From a bacterium (GTDB taxonomy: Bacteria > SZUA-79 > Acidulodesulfobacterales > Acidulodesulfobacteraceae), in assembly GCA_021813595.1 (NCBI GenBank), contig JAKAKF010000076.1, positions 1-5,574 on the forward strand: a stretch of 5,574 nt of DNA, given 5' to 3'. Position 1 is the first letter of the stretch. Each line of letters begins with the position of its first letter. A program made the translations under genes and the position numbers. Below are positions 1 to 5,550 of this stretch, one piece after another. The notes under the pieces were generated by a model, which worked only from the letters and a program-made list of their open reading frames with translations, did no database searches and was not told the origin of the DNA.

Positions 1-112
1 TTTTAATTATAACGTAAATTATAAGTATTTACAATGTCAATACTTACGGACCATCCGGCGGATAAATCAGGCAATATTAATGTAAAAATATATCGTTTTG
101 AAATTGAAGCGT

Positions 113-265
113 ATGCCGTCTAAATCTAATTCGGATATTCTGATTAGAAATCTTTTGCCCGACGATTATAATATGACAAAAGCGGCTAAGACTATCGGAA
201 ATACGAAACAGTTTATCAGCTTCCTGGCAAAAAAGTTCGGGATTAAGAAACCGAGCAAGGCATAA
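113..265 (+). CDS. Small Fis-like helix-turn-helix protein, probably a gene fragment
   Basis: A 50-residue frame begins MPSKSNSD and contains DYNMTKAAKTIGNTKQFIS (residues 18-36) followed by KKFGIKK. This resembles the C-terminal Fis-type helix-turn-helix of sigma-54 activators and related regulators, where N-x-T-K-A-A is followed by a turn and a recognition helix ending near KKYGI. No good Shine-Dalgarno sequence precedes the ATG; there is only GAAG 3 bases upstream. The frame opens just after a stop at 83-85. An overlapping frame (34-123, 29 codons) ends inside it, so the pair may be a frameshifted remnant of one longer gene. A real DNA-binding mini-protein is possible, but a decayed C-terminus is more likely. 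The match is by eye only. Confidence 0.4.
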   Translation: MPSKSNSDILIRNLLPDDYNMTKAAKTIGNTKQFISFLAKKFGIKKPSKA

Positions 266-300
266 AAAGGAAAGAAAGTCTATCTGTATAATTTTATTAA

Positions 301-309
301 TGGTATAAT
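301..309 (+). promoter_or_regulatory. Extended -10 promoter of the decayed toxin-antitoxin pair
   Basis: TGGTATAAT is a perfect extended -10 element (TG at 301-302, TATAAT at 304-309). Transcription would begin near 316, leaving a leader of about 40 bases before the antitoxin. No good -35 is visible at 17-base spacing (TATCTG at 281-286), as is common for extended -10 promoters. The same TGGTATAAT occurs in front of ispF. Confidence 0.5.
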
Positions 310-356
310 AAATATAAGTTTAAAAATAAGTAGGTAAATATTTAACGGAGTAAAAA

Positions 357-545
357 ATACAGACGGTCAAAAACGAAGTTGCCAACCTTCTCAAACGCTT
401 GCCTGATAATTGCACTTTAGAAGATATACAGTATCATTTATATGCGATACAAAAAATTGAACGCGGATTGAAGGATGAGGAAGAAGGCCGCATTTACGAA
501 GAAAAAGAAATTGAAGAGAAAATGTCGAAATGGCTCGAAAAATAA
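357..545 (+). pseudogene. RelE/ParE-partner antitoxin with lost start codon
   Basis: The 62-codon frame reads TVKNEVANLLKRLPDNC, then TLEDIQYHLYAIQKIERGL, and ends EEKMSKWLEK. This is recognisably the short addiction-module antitoxin that accompanies RelE/ParE-type toxins. In the family, the N-terminal half mediates dimer and DNA contacts and the acidic C-terminal tail wraps the toxin. A GGAG at 347-350 stands 6 bases before codon 357-359, which is ATA rather than ATG. A stop at 351-353 leaves no canonical start upstream, and the next possible one is TTG at 399. The simplest reading is an ATG to ATA mutation that abolishes or strongly reduces translation. The rest of the frame is intact, so the loss looks recent. 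It overlaps the dead toxin gene by 16 bases. Confidence 0.7.
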
Positions 546-592
546 TCTGGACGTTAGAGGCCGCCGACTAACTTGAATTAATGTCCGGTTAA
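530..592 (+). pseudogene. RelE/ParE-family toxin remnant, early stop and deletion
   Basis: The ATG at 530-532 lies inside the antitoxin's tail and begins MARKIIWTLEAAD, a typical start of a ParE-like ribonuclease-fold toxin. Codon 14 (569-571) is TAA, where family members usually have a residue such as D followed by L-E. The frame then reads LELMSG and meets a second stop at 590-592. Beyond that no toxin-like sequence is visible before the next gene, so most of the expected roughly 90-100 residues are missing. The toxin cannot be functional, which would relieve the need for its antitoxin and fits the antitoxin's lost start codon. Confidence 0.7.
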
Positions 593-613
593 ACGGAAAC
601 ATGCAATTTATGT

Positions 614-642
614 TTGATTTTTGTATTTACGTATTATAAAAT
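614..642 (+). promoter_or_regulatory. Possible sigma-70-type promoter for the MazF-type pair
   Basis: TTGATT (614-619) and TAAAAT (637-642) are spaced by 17 bases in the AT-rich gap before the antitoxin gene at 688. A start near 649 would give a short leader. In such AT-rich DNA the match is weak evidence, and overlapping alternatives such as TATAAA at 635-640 exist. Family antitoxins usually autoregulate such a promoter, but no convincing operator is visible. Confidence 0.25.
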
Positions 643-687
643 ATATTAAATATATTCAATATTCGACAACTTGATAAAAGGCGAATT

Positions 688-882
688 ATGAGTACTAAAG
701 AATTACTTTTAAATGAAATAGAACATTGCCCGGAGCCTTTTCTTAACGAGGTTTTAGATTTTATGAATTTTTTAAAAACAAAATCTATTCAGGAAAGACT
801 TGAGACTACCGTTATAAGCGAATCCTCTCTTAAAAAAGACTGGCTTAAGCCTGAGGAAGATAAAGCATGGCAGAATTTGTAA
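688..882 (+). CDS. Antitoxin of a PemK/MazF-type toxin-antitoxin pair (DUF2281-like)
   Basis: This 64-residue protein begins MSTKELLLNEIEHCPEPFLNE and continues VLDFMNFLKTK, the helical pattern of small DUF2281-like antitoxins. It ends DWLKPEEDKAWQNL, an acidic, tryptophan-containing tail of the kind that occupies the toxin's active groove. The middle (about 31-50) is polar and probably flexible. The start is supported by AAAAGG at 676-681, 6 bases before the ATG. The gene overlaps the toxin by 16 bases, and its Trp61 codon (868-870) is nested in the toxin's ATGG. This implies translational coupling with the antitoxin made first. Autorepression of the operon is expected for the family but not shown by a clear operator. 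The role rests on resemblance and pairing. Confidence 0.8.
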   Translation: MSTKELLLNEIEHCPEPFLNEVLDFMNFLKTKSIQERLETTVISESSLKKDWLKPEEDKAWQNL

Positions 883-1199
883 AAGGCGATGTTGTTGTAG
901 TTCCTTTTCCTTTTTCCGATTTAAGCCATGCTAAAAGACGACCTGCCTTAGTTATTTCAAAATTAGACGGTGACGATTTAATCCTTTGTCAAATAACCAG
1001 TCAGACCGTTAAAGACAATTATGCGATTTCAATTAATAAAAGCGATTTTGAATCGGGAGATTTAAAACAATCGAGCAATATAAGGCCTAACAGGATATTT
1101 ACGGCCGACAGTCATATTATTCTTTATAAAATCGGTAATCTCACGAAAAATAAGGTCAATCAAATTATAGAAAGCATAGTTGAAATCATACGAAGATGA
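867..1199 (+). CDS. PemK/MazF-family mRNA interferase toxin
   Basis: A 110-residue protein with family hallmarks: KGDVVVVPFPFSDLS (6-20), the KRRPALVIS strand (23-31) with Arg25-Pro26, ILCQITSQ (39-46) and IRPNRIFTAD (72-81). Family members are small SH3-like-fold endoribonucleases that cut mRNA in the cytoplasm when the antitoxin is degraded. The basic RRP and polar T/S segments form the RNA-cleaving site. Length is normal and no key segment is missing, so it appears intact. A GAGG (853-856) lies 10 bases before the ATG within the upstream gene. Cut specificity cannot be read from the sequence. It probably works as a stabilisation module of the surrounding accessory region. Confidence 0.9.
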   Translation: MAEFVKGDVVVVPFPFSDLSHAKRRPALVISKLDGDDLILCQITSQTVKDNYAISINKSDFESGDLKQSSNIRPNRIFTADSHIILYKIGNLTKNKVNQIIESIVEIIRR

Positions 1200-1344
1200 A
1201 TTGCCTATAAAAAAACGGCAGACGTGACATTTTATACAAAATTAAAAATAGCGAGTATGCTGACTGATGGCCGGATTTTCACATAGGCATATTTTTCATA
1301 AGCATTAATACTCTTTAAAATTAATAACTTATAAAAAATCATAA

Positions 1345-1404
1345 CCGGACTCAAAATCCGGCGGGAGCAATCCCATGGGGGTTCGATTTCCCCCTTCGGC
1401 ACCA
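1345..1404 (+). pseudogene. 3' half of tRNA-Leu(CAA), probable attachment site
   Basis: The sequence folds as the 3' part of a class II tRNA. The anticodon stem is CCGGA/TCCGG (1345-1349 with 1357-1361) around loop CTCAAAA, giving anticodon CAA at 1352-1354. A long variable arm follows, GGGA-GCAA-TCCC (1363-1374). The T arm is GGGGG-TTCGATT-TCCCC (1377-1393), with a G-T pair closing the loop. The 3' acceptor strand is CTTCGGC, then discriminator A (1401) and an encoded CCA. The expected 5' acceptor strand (GCCGAAG) and D arm are absent upstream, where AT-rich DNA begins abruptly. It cannot make a tRNA. The break at the 5' edge of the anticodon stem matches the core site used by many tyrosine integrases. 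The E. coli leuX gene, also tRNA-Leu(CAA), is a known island target. Confidence 0.85.
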
Positions 1405-1413
1405 CTTATTTTA

Positions 1414-1437
1414 TAAGGTTCTCCGGTATTAACCTTA
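1414..1437 (+). terminator. Weak stem-loop after the tRNA-Leu fragment
   Basis: TAAGGTT (1414-1420) pairs with AACCTTA (1431-1437) around a 10-base loop. A run of five T (1449-1453) follows only after a gap of about 11 bases. It may be the degenerate terminator of the original tRNA-Leu gene, but the stem is AT-rich and the T run is too distant for a confident call. Confidence 0.2.
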
Positions 1438-1524
1438 ATCTTAATAACTTTTTGCTCAAGTCGGAGAAATTAAATGATTACTGCAATAATAGCGAATAGC
1501 GCCAATTAATTTGTCGTATTGTGC

Positions 1525-1559
1525 TGGTATTAATGCCAACTTAGTTAACAAAATGCCAA
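1525..1559. repeat. Imperfect palindrome plus direct repeat, possible activator site
   Basis: TGGTATTAATGCCA (1525-1538) is a 14-base palindrome with one mismatched pair. Its right part, AATGCCAA (1532-1539), recurs as AATGCCAA at 1552-1559, exactly 20 bases or two helical turns downstream. The block lies roughly 135-165 bases before the -24 element, a typical distance for a sigma-54 activator site. No regulator is identified. Confidence 0.3.
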
Positions 1560-1615
1560 GGTATTTCATTAAAATATAATTTTTGATATGCCTGCCGCCC
1601 TCTGAAATTTTAATT

Positions 1616-1635
1616 TTTATATCCGTTTATATCCG
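1616..1635 (+). repeat. Tandem repeat of TTTATATCCG (2 copies)
   Basis: TTTATATCCG occurs twice back to back (1616-1625 and 1626-1635), perfectly, with a period of about one helical turn. It begins about 77 bases and ends about 57 bases before the -24 element. It could be a same-face protein-binding site or a chance slippage repeat. Confidence 0.5.
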
Positions 1636-1679
1636 CTTTAGTCCCTAAAAATAAACCGATTAAAATATCATATACTTTT

Positions 1680-1720
1680 TAAATAATATTATGGCATAGA
1701 AATTGCTTTAATATTATTTA
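1680..1720. repeat. 11-base inverted repeat framing the sigma-54 promoter
   Basis: TAAATAATATT (1680-1690) and AATATTATTTA (1710-1720) are perfect reverse complements separated by 19 bases. The sigma-54 recognition element (1692-1707) sits inside that interval. A further copy of AATAATATT lies at 1745-1753. All arms are pure A/T, so chance is possible in this AT-rich region. The placement around the promoter makes a regulator site or local melting element conceivable. Confidence 0.4.
1692..1707 (+). promoter_or_regulatory. Sigma-54 (RpoN) promoter of the HD-GYP gene
   Basis: TGGCATAGAAATTGCT matches every defined position of the sigma-54 consensus TGGCAYRNNNNTTGCW. GG lies at 1693-1694 and GC at 1705-1706, with the required 10 bases between them. 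The predicted start is near 1718, giving a leader of about 78 bases before the ATG at 1796. Transcription would require RNA polymerase with RpoN and an ATP-using enhancer-binding activator. Confidence 0.85.
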
Positions 1721-1795
1721 TAATAATAAACATTTAAAAACCGTAATAATATTTTCCGCTGTTAATTTTGCTTAACCTGTAAAGATTTATATTTT

Positions 1796-3031
1796 ATGAT
1801 TAAAAAAGTGGATATAAAACAATTGGAAGTCGGAATGTATGTCGAAAAAATAGACCTTGCGTGGACGGACCATCCGTTCCTAAGGAACAGTTTTTTAATA
1901 AAAACTCTGGAAGCGATTAAAAAGCTATCCGATGCCGGAGTCCATACTGTTTATATAGATACGTCCAAAGGATTAGACGCTTATAACGCGCCCACAGAAA
2001 AAGAAGTTCTAAAAGAAATAGAGGAAAAAATAATCAATGTCGTATCGGATAAAGAATCCGAAGAAAAAGTAAAGAAAGTTGCCGGTTATAAAAAAACTTC
2101 GATATATAAAGAAATAAACGAGGCAAAAAAAATATTCAGGGAAACGACTGGCATTATTCGCAACTTTATGTTCGATGCGAGATTGGGCAGAAAGGTTGAA
2201 GTCGAAAGATTGAAACCCGCTATCGAAGATGTTTCTTCATCGCTTTTAAGATGCCCGGATGCACTTTTATCGTTATCGCGGATAAAACACAAGGATGACT
2301 ATACTTTTGAACACTGCGTTTCGGTATCGGCTATTCAGGTGTCTTTCAGCGCCTATCTAAATATGAACGAGCAGGATATATATAATTCGTGCATAGGGGG
2401 CTTTTTACACGACATAGGCAAAATTATGATGCCGGATTATATATTAAATAAGCCCGCCAAACTAAACGACGAGGAGTTCAGAATAATGAAAAGCCATGTC
2501 GTCGAGACTAAAAAAATTTTGGATGAGATTCCCGGGATAGAAGAAATAGCAAAACAAATTGCTTATCAACATCATGAAAGGTATGACGGGAGCGGCTATC
2601 CTTTAGGGCTCAAAGGAGAACAAATATCGCAAGCGGGGAAAATAGCCGCTATATGCGATGTTTACGACGCAATCACTTCGAACAGGATATACCACAAAGG
2701 CATTCCGCCTCATACGGCTCTCGGCAAACTCTTAGAATGGTCCGATTTTAATTTCGATAAGCTTTTAGTTGAACAATTTATAAGATTCATAGGCGTTTAT
2801 CCAGTCGGAACGCTTGTAAAATTAGAATCGGGGTTAATAGGAGTAGTCGTAGAACAAAATAACGGCGGCGCAAATTCTTTATTTCCTATTATAAAAATAT
2901 TCTATTCTTCAAAATACGGAAGATATATAAATGAATATCATCTCGACTTGTCAAAAGAAAATTGTAACAATAAAATCGTTTCCATAATTTCTGCTGAAGA
3001 AATAAATATAAATCCTATAAATTTATTTTAA
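1796..3031 (+). CDS. HD-GYP domain c-di-GMP phosphodiesterase with DUF3391 N-terminus
   Basis: A 411-residue cytoplasmic protein without signal peptide or membrane segments. Residues 1-60 (GMYVEKID, W23, DHPF, VYID) match the DUF3391 domain found in front of many HD-GYP proteins. A charged, probably helical linker follows (about 65-145). The HD-GYP domain (about 155-315) has FEH173, H205-D206 in FLHDIGK, H234, H259-H260 in HHERYDG, GYP at 267-269 and D288 in CDVYDAITS. The metal-binding set is therefore complete, and hydrolysis of c-di-GMP to pGpG or GMP is expected. The tail (about 330-385, IGVYPVGTLVKLESGLIGVVVE) is also common in this subfamily. The start is set by the DUF3391 match; its ribosome site is weak (TAAAG, 11 bases upstream). 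A perfect sigma-54 promoter lies upstream, suggesting control with motility, surface or nutrient responses. No terminator is visible in the 47-base convergent gap to the next gene. Confidence 0.93.
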   Translation: MIKKVDIKQLEVGMYVEKIDLAWTDHPFLRNSFLIKTLEAIKKLSDAGVHTVYIDTSKGLDAYNAPTEKEVLKEIEEKIINVVSDKESEEKVKKVAGYKKTSIYKEINEAKKIFRETTGIIRNFMFDARLGRKVEVERLKPAIEDVSSSLLRCPDALLSLSRIKHKDDYTFEHCVSVSAIQVSFSAYLNMNEQDIYNSCIGGFLHDIGKIMMPDYILNKPAKLNDEEFRIMKSHVVETKKILDEIPGIEEIAKQIAYQHHERYDGSGYPLGLKGEQISQAGKIAAICDVYDAITSNRIYHKGIPPHTALGKLLEWSDFNFDKLLVEQFIRFIGVYPVGTLVKLESGLIGVVVEQNNGGANSLFPIIKIFYSSKYGRYINEYHLDLSKENCNNKIVSIISAEEININPINLF

Positions 3032-3078
3032 CGCATATTTAAATAACGCTTTCTTTTTCTAATTTAATTAACGCCGGC

Positions 3079-4146
3079 TTAAAATCTAGCTCTTAGATAT
3101 TGTTTCGGCCATTCGATATCGACGCCGAGCTTATGCGCCGCCATAAGCGGCCAGTAAGGGTTTCGTAGCAACTCCCTGCCCATCTCGACCATATCCGCAG
3201 TTCCCGAACTCAATATGAAATCGGCAAACTCCGGTTTCGTAATGAGCCCCACTCCCGAAACGGCAATACCGGCCTTTTCCCTTATCTCTTTTGCGAAGCC
3301 GAGCTGGTAGCCGTAGTATATATTCATTTTGGCGTTAGGAGCGATACCTCCGGAAGAACAGTCTATTAAAGAAACTCCAGCTTCTTTCAGCATTTTTGCC
3401 AGAACAACCGCCGATTCAATGTCAAAACCTCCTTCTACCCAATCTACGGCCGAAATTCTTACGAATATAGGTTTGTTTTTCGGCCAGCCTTCGGATTTTA
3501 TAGCTTCTAATACTTCCAACAGCAGTCTTGCCCTGTTTTCTATGGAACCGCCGTACTTATCTTTTCTTTTGTTCGATAAAGGCGACAAAAACTCGTTTAT
3601 CAAATATCCGTGCGCGGCGTGTATTTCTATCAGGTCGAATCCGGCCTTATCGGCATTTTTTGCTCCGTTTGCGAAATCCTTTATAACCTTTTTAATATCG
3701 TTTTCATCCATTTCTTTCGGAACCGGATAATCTTCATTAAATGGAATAGAGCTTGGCCCGAGAACCTGCCACCCTCCTTCGTCCTGTTTTAGCGGGTTGT
3801 CTCCAAGCCAAGGAGCGTTTGTCGATGCCTTTCTTCCGGCATGCGCCAGTTGTATTCCCATTACCGACCCGCAGGATTTACAAAATTTTACCAGCGGGCT
3901 AAAAGCGTCAACCTGTTTTTCGTTCCATATTCCGGCATCATAAGGGCTTATTCTCCCCTCAGGGCTAACGCCGGTAGCTTCTACGATAATAAGTCCGACC
4001 CCGCCCACGGCTCTTGCTCCGAGATGCGCAGAGTGAAAATCTCCTATTACGCCGTCAACCGCGGAATACATACACATGGGCGCCATCATTATTCTGTTTT
4101 TTATTTTTATTCCGCCTATTTCTATAGGCTCAAAAAGCATTCTCAT
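3079..4146 (-). CDS. NADH:flavin oxidoreductase, YqjM/NamA-class Old Yellow Enzyme
   Basis: A 355-residue FMN-dependent TIM-barrel ene-reductase that would use NAD(P)H to reduce activated C=C bonds such as those of enones. It begins MLFEPIEIGGIKIKNRI and carries the signature of the class typified by Bacillus YqjM: Cys25 and Tyr27 in APMCMYS, QLAHAGRKA (99-107), His176 and His179 with Tyr181 in IHAAHGYLINEFLSPLSN, Arg230, and the FMN-phosphate segment MGRELLRNPYWPL (322-334). The end QYLRARF keeps the QYxR motif, whose arginine reaches into the neighbouring subunit in YqjM. AAGGAGGA lies 9 bases before the chosen ATG; a second ATG two codons later is less well placed. It is transcribed divergently from ispF, with an extended -10 promoter of its own. 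Physiological substrate is unknown; stress or quinone and enal detoxification are typical guesses for the family. Confidence 0.93.
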   Translation of the reverse strand: MRMLFEPIEIGGIKIKNRIMMAPMCMYSAVDGVIGDFHSAHLGARAVGGVGLIIVEATGVSPEGRISPYDAGIWNEKQVDAFSPLVKFCKSCGSVMGIQLAHAGRKASTNAPWLGDNPLKQDEGGWQVLGPSSIPFNEDYPVPKEMDENDIKKVIKDFANGAKNADKAGFDLIEIHAAHGYLINEFLSPLSNKRKDKYGGSIENRARLLLEVLEAIKSEGWPKNKPIFVRISAVDWVEGGFDIESAVVLAKMLKEAGVSLIDCSSGGIAPNAKMNIYYGYQLGFAKEIREKAGIAVSGVGLITKPEFADFILSSGTADMVEMGRELLRNPYWPLMAAHKLGVDIEWPKQYLRARF

Positions 4147-4249: not shown

Positions 4250-4753
4250 ATGGATAACATCAGAATAGGAAGCGGTTACGACATACACAAGTTTTTAGAA
4301 ATAGCGCTTTTTGAAAACGCCGCTAAAAAATTATATCTCGGAGGCGTATTAATAGAAGGGCATATAGGGGTTGCCGCCCACTCTGACGGCGACGTCGTGC
4401 TTCACTCGCTTACCGATGCTCTCCTTGGAGCCTTATCCCTCCCCGATATAGGCGTTCTTTATCCTGATAATCTTAAATCCACGAAGGGAATTAACAGTGT
4501 AGAAATAATAAAATACGCCTACGGTTTGGTAAAAGATAAAGGATACGGCTTAGTCAACGCCGATATTACTATTATAACGCAGACGCCTAAAATTTCCGCA
4601 TATAAAGAACAAATGACGGTTTCGATATCTTCCGCTTTAGGCGTCGATAAAACGCGGCTCAACATAAAAGGAAAAACGAAAGAAGGCCTCGACTCGGTCG
4701 GAAAGCAAAAAGCCATAGAATGCTTCAGCGTATGCCTGCTTTCTCATGAATAA
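4250..4753 (+). CDS. ispF: 2-C-methyl-D-erythritol 2,4-cyclodiphosphate synthase
   Basis: IspF converts CDP-methylerythritol 2-phosphate to the 2,4-cyclodiphosphate with release of CMP, the fifth step of the MEP isoprenoid pathway. The 167-residue length is close to the usual 155-165. RIGSGYDIHKF (5-15) supplies metal ligands Asp11 and His13, and AHSDGDVVLHSLTDALLGA (43-61) includes the third ligand His52. LPDIGVLYPD (64-73) and NADITIITQTPKI (103-115) follow the family pattern. The C-terminal segment KTKEGLDSVGKQKAIEC (142-158) departs from the common EGLGFTGRGEGIA: the usual R and E are K152 and K154. The ATG at 4250 has no Shine-Dalgarno sequence and sits at the predicted transcription start. 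IspD follows 20 bases downstream, probably in the same operon. Confidence 0.95.
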   Translation: MDNIRIGSGYDIHKFLEIALFENAAKKLYLGGVLIEGHIGVAAHSDGDVVLHSLTDALLGALSLPDIGVLYPDNLKSTKGINSVEIIKYAYGLVKDKGYGLVNADITIITQTPKISAYKEQMTVSISSALGVDKTRLNIKGKTKEGLDSVGKQKAIECFSVCLLSHE

Positions 4754-4773: not shown

Positions 4774-5550
4774 ATGAAAAATTACGCCGTACTGCTTGCT
4801 GCGGGAACGGGTTCCCGGACGGGCGCCGCAATACCCAAACAGCTTATAAAAATTAACGGGAAAGAAATCATACTCCTCAGCCTCGAAATTTTTTTTAAAT
4901 CAAAAATTAATTTCGAAACGGTTATCGTAGCGACCCCGCCGCCGTCGGTTTTTAAATTTGACTGGAATAATTTTTTTAAAAAAAATCTCGGAAACGGCGA
5001 AATGGAAAAATTGCAGATAATAACAGGCGGAGAAACAAGACAGCGGTCGGTAGGTAATTCTATAAAATATTTAGAAAGTATTATTCCTCCTGCCGAAACG
5101 GAAAATGCCGTCGTTTTTATCCATGACTCCGCAAGGCCTTTCGTAACGGACGAAGAACTGCATTTATTGTTTCAGAAAACCGCCGCCGAAGGCGCCGCTT
5201 TTCTCTGTTCCGAAGTTACGGAAACTATAAAAGAAATTAACAATGGAGCAAAAATCGGAATTGTAACTGAAAACGCAACCGGAACCGCAAATCCGGAACT
5301 GAAAACGCTAAAAAGGGATAACTTGATATCCGCCAAAACTCCTCAGGTCTTCAGATTTGAAATTATAAAAAAGGCGCTCGAAAAAGCCGCGGGAGAAGAT
5401 TTTATATCGACCGACGACGTTTCTCTCCTCGAGAATTTAGGCTTAACGGCGGCGGCCGTTAAATCTACCGATTTTAACATTAAAATAACTTCGGCGCTCG
5501 ATATCGAGATAGCGGAACTTTTCTTAAGCAGATTCAAACAAATAGACTAA
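4774..5550 (+). CDS. ispD: 2-C-methyl-D-erythritol 4-phosphate cytidylyltransferase
   Basis: IspD joins CTP and methylerythritol 4-phosphate to give CDP-methylerythritol, the third MEP step. The nucleotide-binding loop LLAAGTGSRTGAAIPKQ (7-23) contains the expected Arg15 and Lys22. Other motifs are GGETRQRSV (85-93), FIHDSARPFV (115-124), ETIK (150-153), RDNLISAKTPQVF (181-193), STDDVSLLE (212-220) and FNIKIT (234-239) with Lys237. At 258 residues it is somewhat longer than the usual 225-240, with extra sequence around 60-77 and 156-180. The ribosome site before the ATG is weak, so coupling to ispF translation is plausible. The order ispF then ispD is the reverse of the common ispD-ispF arrangement, and the two are separate genes rather than an IspDF fusion. 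No convincing terminator is seen in the remaining 24 bases. Confidence 0.95.
   Translation: MKNYAVLLAAGTGSRTGAAIPKQLIKINGKEIILLSLEIFFKSKINFETVIVATPPPSVFKFDWNNFFKKNLGNGEMEKLQIITGGETRQRSVGNSIKYLESIIPPAETENAVVFIHDSARPFVTDEELHLLFQKTAAEGAAFLCSEVTETIKEINNGAKIGIVTENATGTANPELKTLKRDNLISAKTPQVFRFEIIKKALEKAAGEDFISTDDVSLLENLGLTAAAVKSTDFNIKITSALDIEIAELFLSRFKQID

What the first reader, a model, noticed from the sequence alone, without database searches (positions are those of the whole stretch)
1345..1404. Orphan 3' half of tRNA-Leu(CAA) marks an integration boundary
The anticodon arm, long variable arm, T arm, 3' acceptor strand and CCA are all present, while the 5' half is absent. The break lies at the 5' edge of the anticodon stem, where tyrosine integrases often recombine. 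Toxin-antitoxin genes lie on one side and housekeeping genes on the other, as expected for an att site. This predicts an intact tRNA-Leu(CAA) and an integrase gene upstream of the window, with a 60-base direct repeat of this fragment.
Basis: partly seen in the sequence, partly recalled or inferred. Interest (0 to 1): 0.75.

Follow-up and report, generated by a model that had tools for sequence, protein, structure and literature searches.

The report
Genomic-island end at a leucine tRNA
A stranded back half of a leucine tRNA gene marks where a mobile DNA island carrying toxin-antitoxin genes inserted into a bacterial chromosome; this is an ordinary mechanism, but the island belongs to a family whose integrases sit beside many different tRNA genes.

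Summary
Confirmed. Window 1345-1404 is the displaced 3' half of tRNA-Leu(CAA), one base off intact copies in near relatives; no 5' half is present. It is the far-end attachment site of a tyrosine-integrase genomic island, anticodon-subsite type. In G010 an intact tRNA-Leu(CAA) stands 34 bp before the point where chromosomal homology resumes (window 3063). In G001 the site holds intact tRNA, truncated integrase, cargo, the window's PemK-type pair, then the fragment. G026 has a full-length integrase beside the tRNA. The 78 bp before the fragment are an element-end arm, seen before Leu(CAA) 3' halves in 9 of 61 genomes, elsewhere before tRNA-His or tRNA-Lys 3' halves. Corrections: window and bin hold no intact tRNA-Leu(CAA), so that prediction rests on relatives; and 1405-3062, with an HD-GYP gene, is also absent from G010. 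Since 1405-1436 resembles the integrase-side arm, the fragment may join two tandem elements. Related integrases lie beside tRNAs of 20 anticodons (52 of 80 loci). Known mechanism, new family; low to moderate interest.

The parts
1266..1343 (+). Element end arm (P arm), 78 bp, holding the candidate integrase arm site GATTTTCACATAGG at 1274-1287
   Evidence: 17 rows aligned, window and its bin both counted; sequence model R1 finds further copies in related genomes; followed by 3' halves of tRNA-Leu(CAA), tRNA-His(GTG) or tRNA-Lys(CTT)
1344..1404 (+). Displaced 3' half of tRNA-Leu(CAA): anticodon arm, variable arm, T arm, 3' acceptor strand, CCA
   Evidence: 60 of 61 bases identical to intact tRNA-Leu(CAA) in near relatives; no complete tRNA found in the window
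1405..1436 (+). Flank resembling the integrase-side (P') arm; possible junction of two tandem elements
   Evidence: Bases 1405-1444: 31 of 40 identical to the flank of the intact tRNA in G011, 13 of 40 to that of the empty site G010
688..882 (+). Candidate antitoxin (DUF2281-like, below Pfam cut-off) overlapping the toxin gene
   Evidence: Pfam 3.9e-5, 24.6 bits against a cut-off of 26.5; 96.9% identical in the G001 island
867..1199 (+). PemK/MazF-like toxin gene of a type II toxin-antitoxin pair
   Evidence: Pfam PF02452 1.6e-11; 96.4% identical in the G001 island at the same place next to the arm
399..545 (+). Remnant of a second TA antitoxin-like gene; the toxin-like gene after it is cut short
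   Evidence: 91.7% identical (48 aa) to the TA gene of the 815-bp element in G021; no Pfam match
98..265 (+). Small ORF; its DNA 162-265 recurs in several islands
   Evidence: 93-96% DNA identity in L079, L095, L124 and 95% in own contig C144; no Pfam or NCBIfam match
1796..3031 (+). DUF3391 + HD-GYP-type gene, accessory: absent from the empty site of the closest relative
   Evidence: Pfam PF11871 1.3e-32, PF13487 1e-29; homology to G010 resumes at 3063
3079..4146 (-). Old-yellow-enzyme family gene (NamA-like), first chromosomal gene after the site
   Evidence: NCBIfam NamA 433.3 bits, cut-off 431; next to tRNA-Leu(CAA) in empty-site relatives
4250..4753 (+). ispF, chromosomal
   Evidence: TIGR00151 above cut-off; syntenic in relatives
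4774..5550 (+). ispD, chromosomal
   Evidence: Pfam PF01128 3.8e-39; NCBIfam TIGR00453 below its cut-off; syntenic in relatives

Best explanation
The fragment is the displaced attachment site (attR type) of a genomic island that a tyrosine integrase put into tRNA-Leu(CAA). The island carries its own copy of the tRNA 3' half, so integration keeps an intact tRNA at the integrase end and pushes the chromosome's 3' half to the far end, next to the element's end arm (1266-1343). Strand exchange most likely falls in the 7-bp anticodon loop, whose stem gives the paired core sites; GATTTTCACATAGG, present in the window's arm and in the integrase-side arm of relatives, is most likely the arm-type integrase site. 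Shown: fragment, conserved arm, TA cargo, occupied and empty sites in relatives, integrase beside the intact tRNA in relatives. Inferred: crossover position, arm-site role, and the presence of an intact tRNA and integrase upstream in this very genome. Also inferred, about even odds: the fragment is the junction of two tandem elements, the second now reduced to 1405-3062 with an HD-GYP gene.
For: Occupied site G001: intact tRNA-Leu(CAA) L079:12436-12522, truncated integrase 11829-12278, RloB/RloA-like genes (name recalled, not searched), the window's TA pair, arm, 61-base fragment, then OYE. Window 534-1262 is 93.8% identical to that island. Full-length 348-aa integrase beside intact tRNA-Leu(CAA) in G026. 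In 7 genomes (G002, G003, G006, G010, G016, G019, G027) tRNA and OYE are 53-170 nt apart (coordinates). Arm plus Leu fragment in 9 of 61 genomes, the window's own included; in G009 only 17 bases of the half remain. In G020 the fragment and the intact tRNA differ in the variable arm, as expected if the intact gene's 3' half came with the element. The motif stands 53-67 bases before the integrase in all 8 full-length members of one supported clade. By eye, P arm - tRNA-His fragment - P' arm - integrase start in one stretch in G002 (L232), a tandem junction. The own bin holds an intact family integrase at tRNA-Gln(CTG).
Against: No intact tRNA-Leu(CAA) or second 60-base copy in the window or its bin, and no integrase of the Leu(CAA) kind found there; bin contig C84 starts at window 1263. 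The bin also lacks tRNA-Leu TAA and CAG, so the absence says little. In G014 and G022 the intact tRNA and accessory genes are there but no fragment before OYE. The tandem reading is weakened because two empty sites (G003, G006) share TTTTATAAGGTTCTCC with the flank, and because the window has no second fragment near 3062 (by eye).
Confidence: 0.93

Rival explanations
1. The fragment is the 3' part of a split, permuted or intron-bearing tRNA gene and is joined to a 5' half at the RNA level.
For: The bin lacks an intact tRNA-Leu(CAA).
Against: Intact tRNA-Leu(CAA) stands at this locus in many relatives, occupied and empty. Several fragments decay: window one base off, G004, G001 and G011 altered, G009 and the second G004 copy cut to 17 bases; those of G025, G026, G020 and G021 are not visibly decayed. 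The upstream 78 bp also precede tRNA-His and tRNA-Lys 3' halves.
Confidence: 0.02
2. The fragment arose by random duplication or deletion of the tRNA gene, not by site-specific integration.
For: No integrase recognised among the window's main ORFs; the window is short.
Against: The same arm-fragment junction with the same break recurs in 9 of 61 genomes and at other tRNAs, with integrases at the intact end in relatives.
Confidence: 0.02
3. The flank 1405-1436 is native chromosomal DNA and the HD-GYP gene entered next to it independently, so the fragment is a plain attR and not a tandem junction.
For: Empty sites G003 and G006 share TTTTATAAGGTTCTCC after the tRNA (23 of 40 bases identical to the window flank); empty site G016 is 26 of 40.
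Against: The closest empty site G010 has none of it (13 of 40) while the flank of the intact tRNA in G011, on the integrase side, matches 31 of 40; a tandem P-core-P' junction exists in the family (L232, by eye).
Confidence: 0.45

Closest known systems
tDNA-integrated genomic islands, anticodon-centred subsite (Islander; PMC4383910, passages read)
   Same: Intact tDNA at one end, displaced 3' tDNA fragment at the other, tyrosine integrase in the island, tandem arrays known; 2083 of 3919 Islander islands use the anticodon-centred site (as stated there)
   Different: Not in substance; hosts are MAGs, and several copies have lost the integrase or are short (815 bp in G021, under Islander's 2-kb filter)
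Partial tRNA genes left by integration (PMC9897764, passages read)
   Same: Partial tRNA copy as a by-product of element integration
   Different: That survey concerns mainly Thermococcaceae
Archaeal pT26-2-type integrases with target diversification (PMC8371274, passages read)
   Same: Related integrases use many tRNA genes (14 reported there for the Thermococcales ones)
   Different: There switching is said to stay within tRNAs with or without the long variable arm; here one supported integrase clade includes Leu(CAA) together with His, Lys and Gln. The Thermococcales ones are suicidal integrases that carry the att site inside their gene; here the integrase gene lies outside the att site

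Membership tests
Genomic island integrated in a tRNA gene by a tyrosine integrase | Displaced 3' fragment matching the end of an intact tRNA | tested here: met
   60 of 61 bases
Genomic island integrated in a tRNA gene by a tyrosine integrase | Intact copy of that tRNA at the other end of the same element | tested here: inconclusive
   Met on one contig in relatives G001, G004 and G021; not found in the window or its fragmented bin
Genomic island integrated in a tRNA gene by a tyrosine integrase | Tyrosine integrase gene in the element | tested here: inconclusive
   Present beside tRNA-Leu(CAA) in relatives; in the own bin an intact family member lies at tRNA-Gln(CTG) instead
Genomic island integrated in a tRNA gene by a tyrosine integrase | Empty site in related genomes | tested here: met
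   7 genomes with tRNA 53-170 nt from OYE; homology to G010 resumes at 3063
Genomic island integrated in a tRNA gene by a tyrosine integrase | Excision and circular junction | not testable with these tools
   Needs DNA of the organism or raw reads
Anticodon-subsite integrase class | Repeat starts at the 5' side of the anticodon stem | tested here: met
   Leu, His and Lys fragments all begin at or in the anticodon stem (by eye)
Type II TA pair, PemK/MazF kind | PemK-like toxin overlapping an upstream small antitoxin gene | tested here: met
   PF02452 above cut-off; overlap 867-882; antitoxin match below cut-off

The most novel reading that the evidence does not exclude
The window is one end of an integrase family that has spread over tRNA genes of at least 20 anticodons in one bacterial lineage (probably Ca. 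Acidulodesulfobacterales, inferred). Its DNA arm sites are kept within an integrase clade while the core is exchanged between tRNAs with and without a long variable arm. This would be a natural series for reading how integrases change target, with short TA-only passengers that keep the arm and so may be moved in trans.
Probability: 0.55. Interest if true: 0.5.

Novelty: new member of a known kind. Interest (0 to 1): 0.3.

Why it matters
The finding is a clean example of a known signature and explains a tRNA half that annotation might mistake for a gene. The integrase family behind it offers many related enzymes beside different tRNA genes, one clade of them with a recognisable arm site, useful for asking how integrase target choice evolves.

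Tried and rejected
Split or permuted tRNA: rejected because intact copies stand at the same locus in relatives and several fragments decay. Rfam at E up to 1: no match in the window. Search of the own bin for the rest of the island: of 22 matches of window 1-1345 only C144 (162-265) and C84 (1263-1345) are strong; the other 20 have E of 0.003 or more. HD-GYP gene as a syntenic chromosomal gene: its best relatives among 31 genomes (46-47%), in G004 and G010, lie on other contigs than the tRNA-Leu site, and DNA matches to 1440-3060 are weak (best 68% over 292 bases). PADLOC: no match for the TA genes or the HD-GYP protein. The Phage_integrase family search over 61 genomes gave matches in 60, its list was cut, and it was too general to use. 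Literature: Williams 2002 (PMC100330) is not held; its content on integrase subfamilies is recalled only. By titles and abstract starts, searches (4 papers; 1; 1; 10 of 111 seen; 5; 5) show no paper on this island family; one search lists 10 of 39 papers naming Acidulodesulfobacterales. Tree limits: 57 of 80 integrase loci entered the tree, 23 dropped as short or with stops; one distant row (L218) is a long branch; quick method only.

Full report
Observation. No tool finds a complete tRNA in the window. Identity with intact tRNA-Leu(CAA) starts at 1344: 60 of 61 bases in the nearest relatives, 54-56 of 61 in more distant ones. The one differing base lies in the T stem; the intact copies of the family read GATTCCCCCC (one, L070, GACTCCCCCC), the window and its bin GATTTCCCCC. 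In tRNAs that place is normally a G-C pair (recalled), which fits a sequence no longer used as a tRNA.

Own genome. The bin G000 (1.62 Mb in 228 contigs, 91% complete) holds the right part of the window as contig C84, starting at window 1263, with 7 mismatches in the 1658 bases compared. Its tRNA set, read from 37 Rfam matches of which 33 are over the cut-off, has Leu TAG and AAG but no CAA, TAA or CAG; one of the four matches below the cut-off is the fragment itself (C84, 15.1 bits), three were not identified. The bin is fragmented, so absence of the intact gene is weak evidence. The bin holds an intact relative of the integrase (59% identity) next to tRNA-Gln(CTG) on contig C78.

Relatives at the same locus. 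A search of 61 genomes, 30 of them of the window's family (G000-G029), and fetched stretches show the tRNA-Leu(CAA) site in several states. Empty, 7: in G002, G003, G006, G010, G016, G019 and G027 the tRNA and the old-yellow-enzyme gene are 53-170 nt apart. Arm plus fragment, 9: own, G001, G004, G009, G011, G020, G021, G025, G026. G001 has intact tRNA, truncated integrase, RloB/RloA-like genes (named from recall, not searched), the window's TA pair, arm, fragment and OYE within 6 kb; window 534-1262 is 93.8% identical to it. G021 has an 815-bp element with only a TA-like pair between intact tRNA and fragment. G004 has two arms in series after one intact tRNA. G011, G020, G025 and G026 carry arm plus fragment on one contig and the intact tRNA on another; G009 has the arm with 17 bases of fragment. 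Accessory genes after the tRNA but no fragment seen, 3: G014, G022, and G005, whose contig ends 3.2 kb after the tRNA. Other states, 4: G007 (tRNA, then IspF 211 nt on, no OYE), G017, G018 and G023. In the other 7 family genomes (G008, G012, G013, G015, G024, G028, G029) one search shows no match to the whole fragment above 85%. Integrases beside the tRNA: full-length in G026 (348 aa, Phage_integrase 1.2e-28), broken or partial in G001, G005, G011 and G022. In G020 the fragment and the intact tRNA differ in the variable arm, as expected if the intact gene's 3' half arrived with the element and the crossover lies before the variable arm.

Arms. The 78 bp before the fragment form a family: 17 rows aligned, window and bin both counted. 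The same arm stands before tRNA-His(GTG) 3' halves in G002, G005, G006, G007, G011, G015, G018 and G022 (cut short in G026) and before a tRNA-Lys(CTT) 3' half in G005; one copy in G022 (L123) is followed by something I could not name. A model of these arms, searched in 31 genomes (G020-G029 not among them), gave matches at E up to 0.01 in 15, several weak. On the integrase side the motif ATTTTCACATAGG stands 44-68 bases before the integrase, in 12 of 80 integrase loci at up to two mismatches, among them all 8 full-length rows of one supported clade (SH-aLRT 100); 8 of the 80 are cut at the contig edge and could not show it. I infer that it is the arm-type binding site.

What lies to the right. 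Homology to the closest empty site (G010, OYE 97.7% identical) resumes at window 3063 (94.9% over 78 bases); in G010 34 bases separate the tRNA end (C76:1956) from that point (L132:1921). So 1405-3062, including the DUF3391/HD-GYP gene, is accessory too. Its first 40 bases match the integrase-side flank of G011 at 31 and the G010 flank at 13. By eye, a P arm - fragment - P' arm - integrase-start arrangement is seen in one stretch in G002 at tRNA-His (L232). I therefore give about even odds that the window fragment joins two tandem elements, the second reduced to a remnant. Against this, empty sites G003 and G006 share part of the flank (23 of 40) and G016 26 of 40, and no second fragment lies near 3062.

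Wider family. That the window belongs to Ca. Acidulodesulfobacterales is an inference from this. In 52 of 80 a tRNA on the same strand ends within 700 bp before the integrase; 8 are cut at the contig edge and 20 have none by ARAGORN; of 15 of these 20 whose upstream DNA was printed, several show a tRNA 3' half by eye, in either orientation. Random points in the same loci, at least 1.5 kb from the integrase, have such a tRNA in 51 of 8496 draws. The 52 cover 20 anticodons; adjacency is the evidence, and the displaced fragment was checked only for Leu, His and Lys. On a quick tree of 57 integrases, 45 with a named target, at least 31 changes of target are needed. Targets are also inherited: with unknown counted as a group, 34 changes against 42.6 in shuffles, as low in 0 of 200. 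Target switching in integrase families is known (PMC8371274, passages read); there it is said to stay within tRNAs with or without the long variable arm, whereas here Leu(CAA) falls in a supported clade with His, Lys and Gln, though its place inside that clade is open.

Verdict. Its picture of the right-hand side needs correction, and its prediction of an intact tRNA upstream remains untested in this genome.

Noticed in passing
L090:14516-15417: An 815-bp element with only a TA-like pair between an intact tRNA-Leu(CAA) and its 3' fragment; perhaps a passenger moved in trans or a deletion remnant.
   Followed up: partly
window 162-265; L079:9061-9164; L095:8964-9065; L124:815-952: A short DNA stretch (about 104 bp, 93-96% identical) with a small ORF recurs in several islands, also at tRNA-His; no family match.
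   Followed up: no
L142-L221: One integrase family sits beside tRNAs of 20 anticodons (52 of 80 loci); the arm motif follows one integrase clade, not one tRNA.
   Followed up: partly
window 361-600: Decayed remnant of a second TA pair whose longer relatives are in G021 (L090) and G014 (L092).
   Followed up: no
L123 around 1215-1292: An arm copy followed by a sequence that is not a Leu, His or Lys 3' half and was not identified.
   Followed up: no
window 1304-1341 against L001: By eye, 6 of the 7 differences between the window and its bin over 1658 bases cluster just before the fragment.
   Followed up: no
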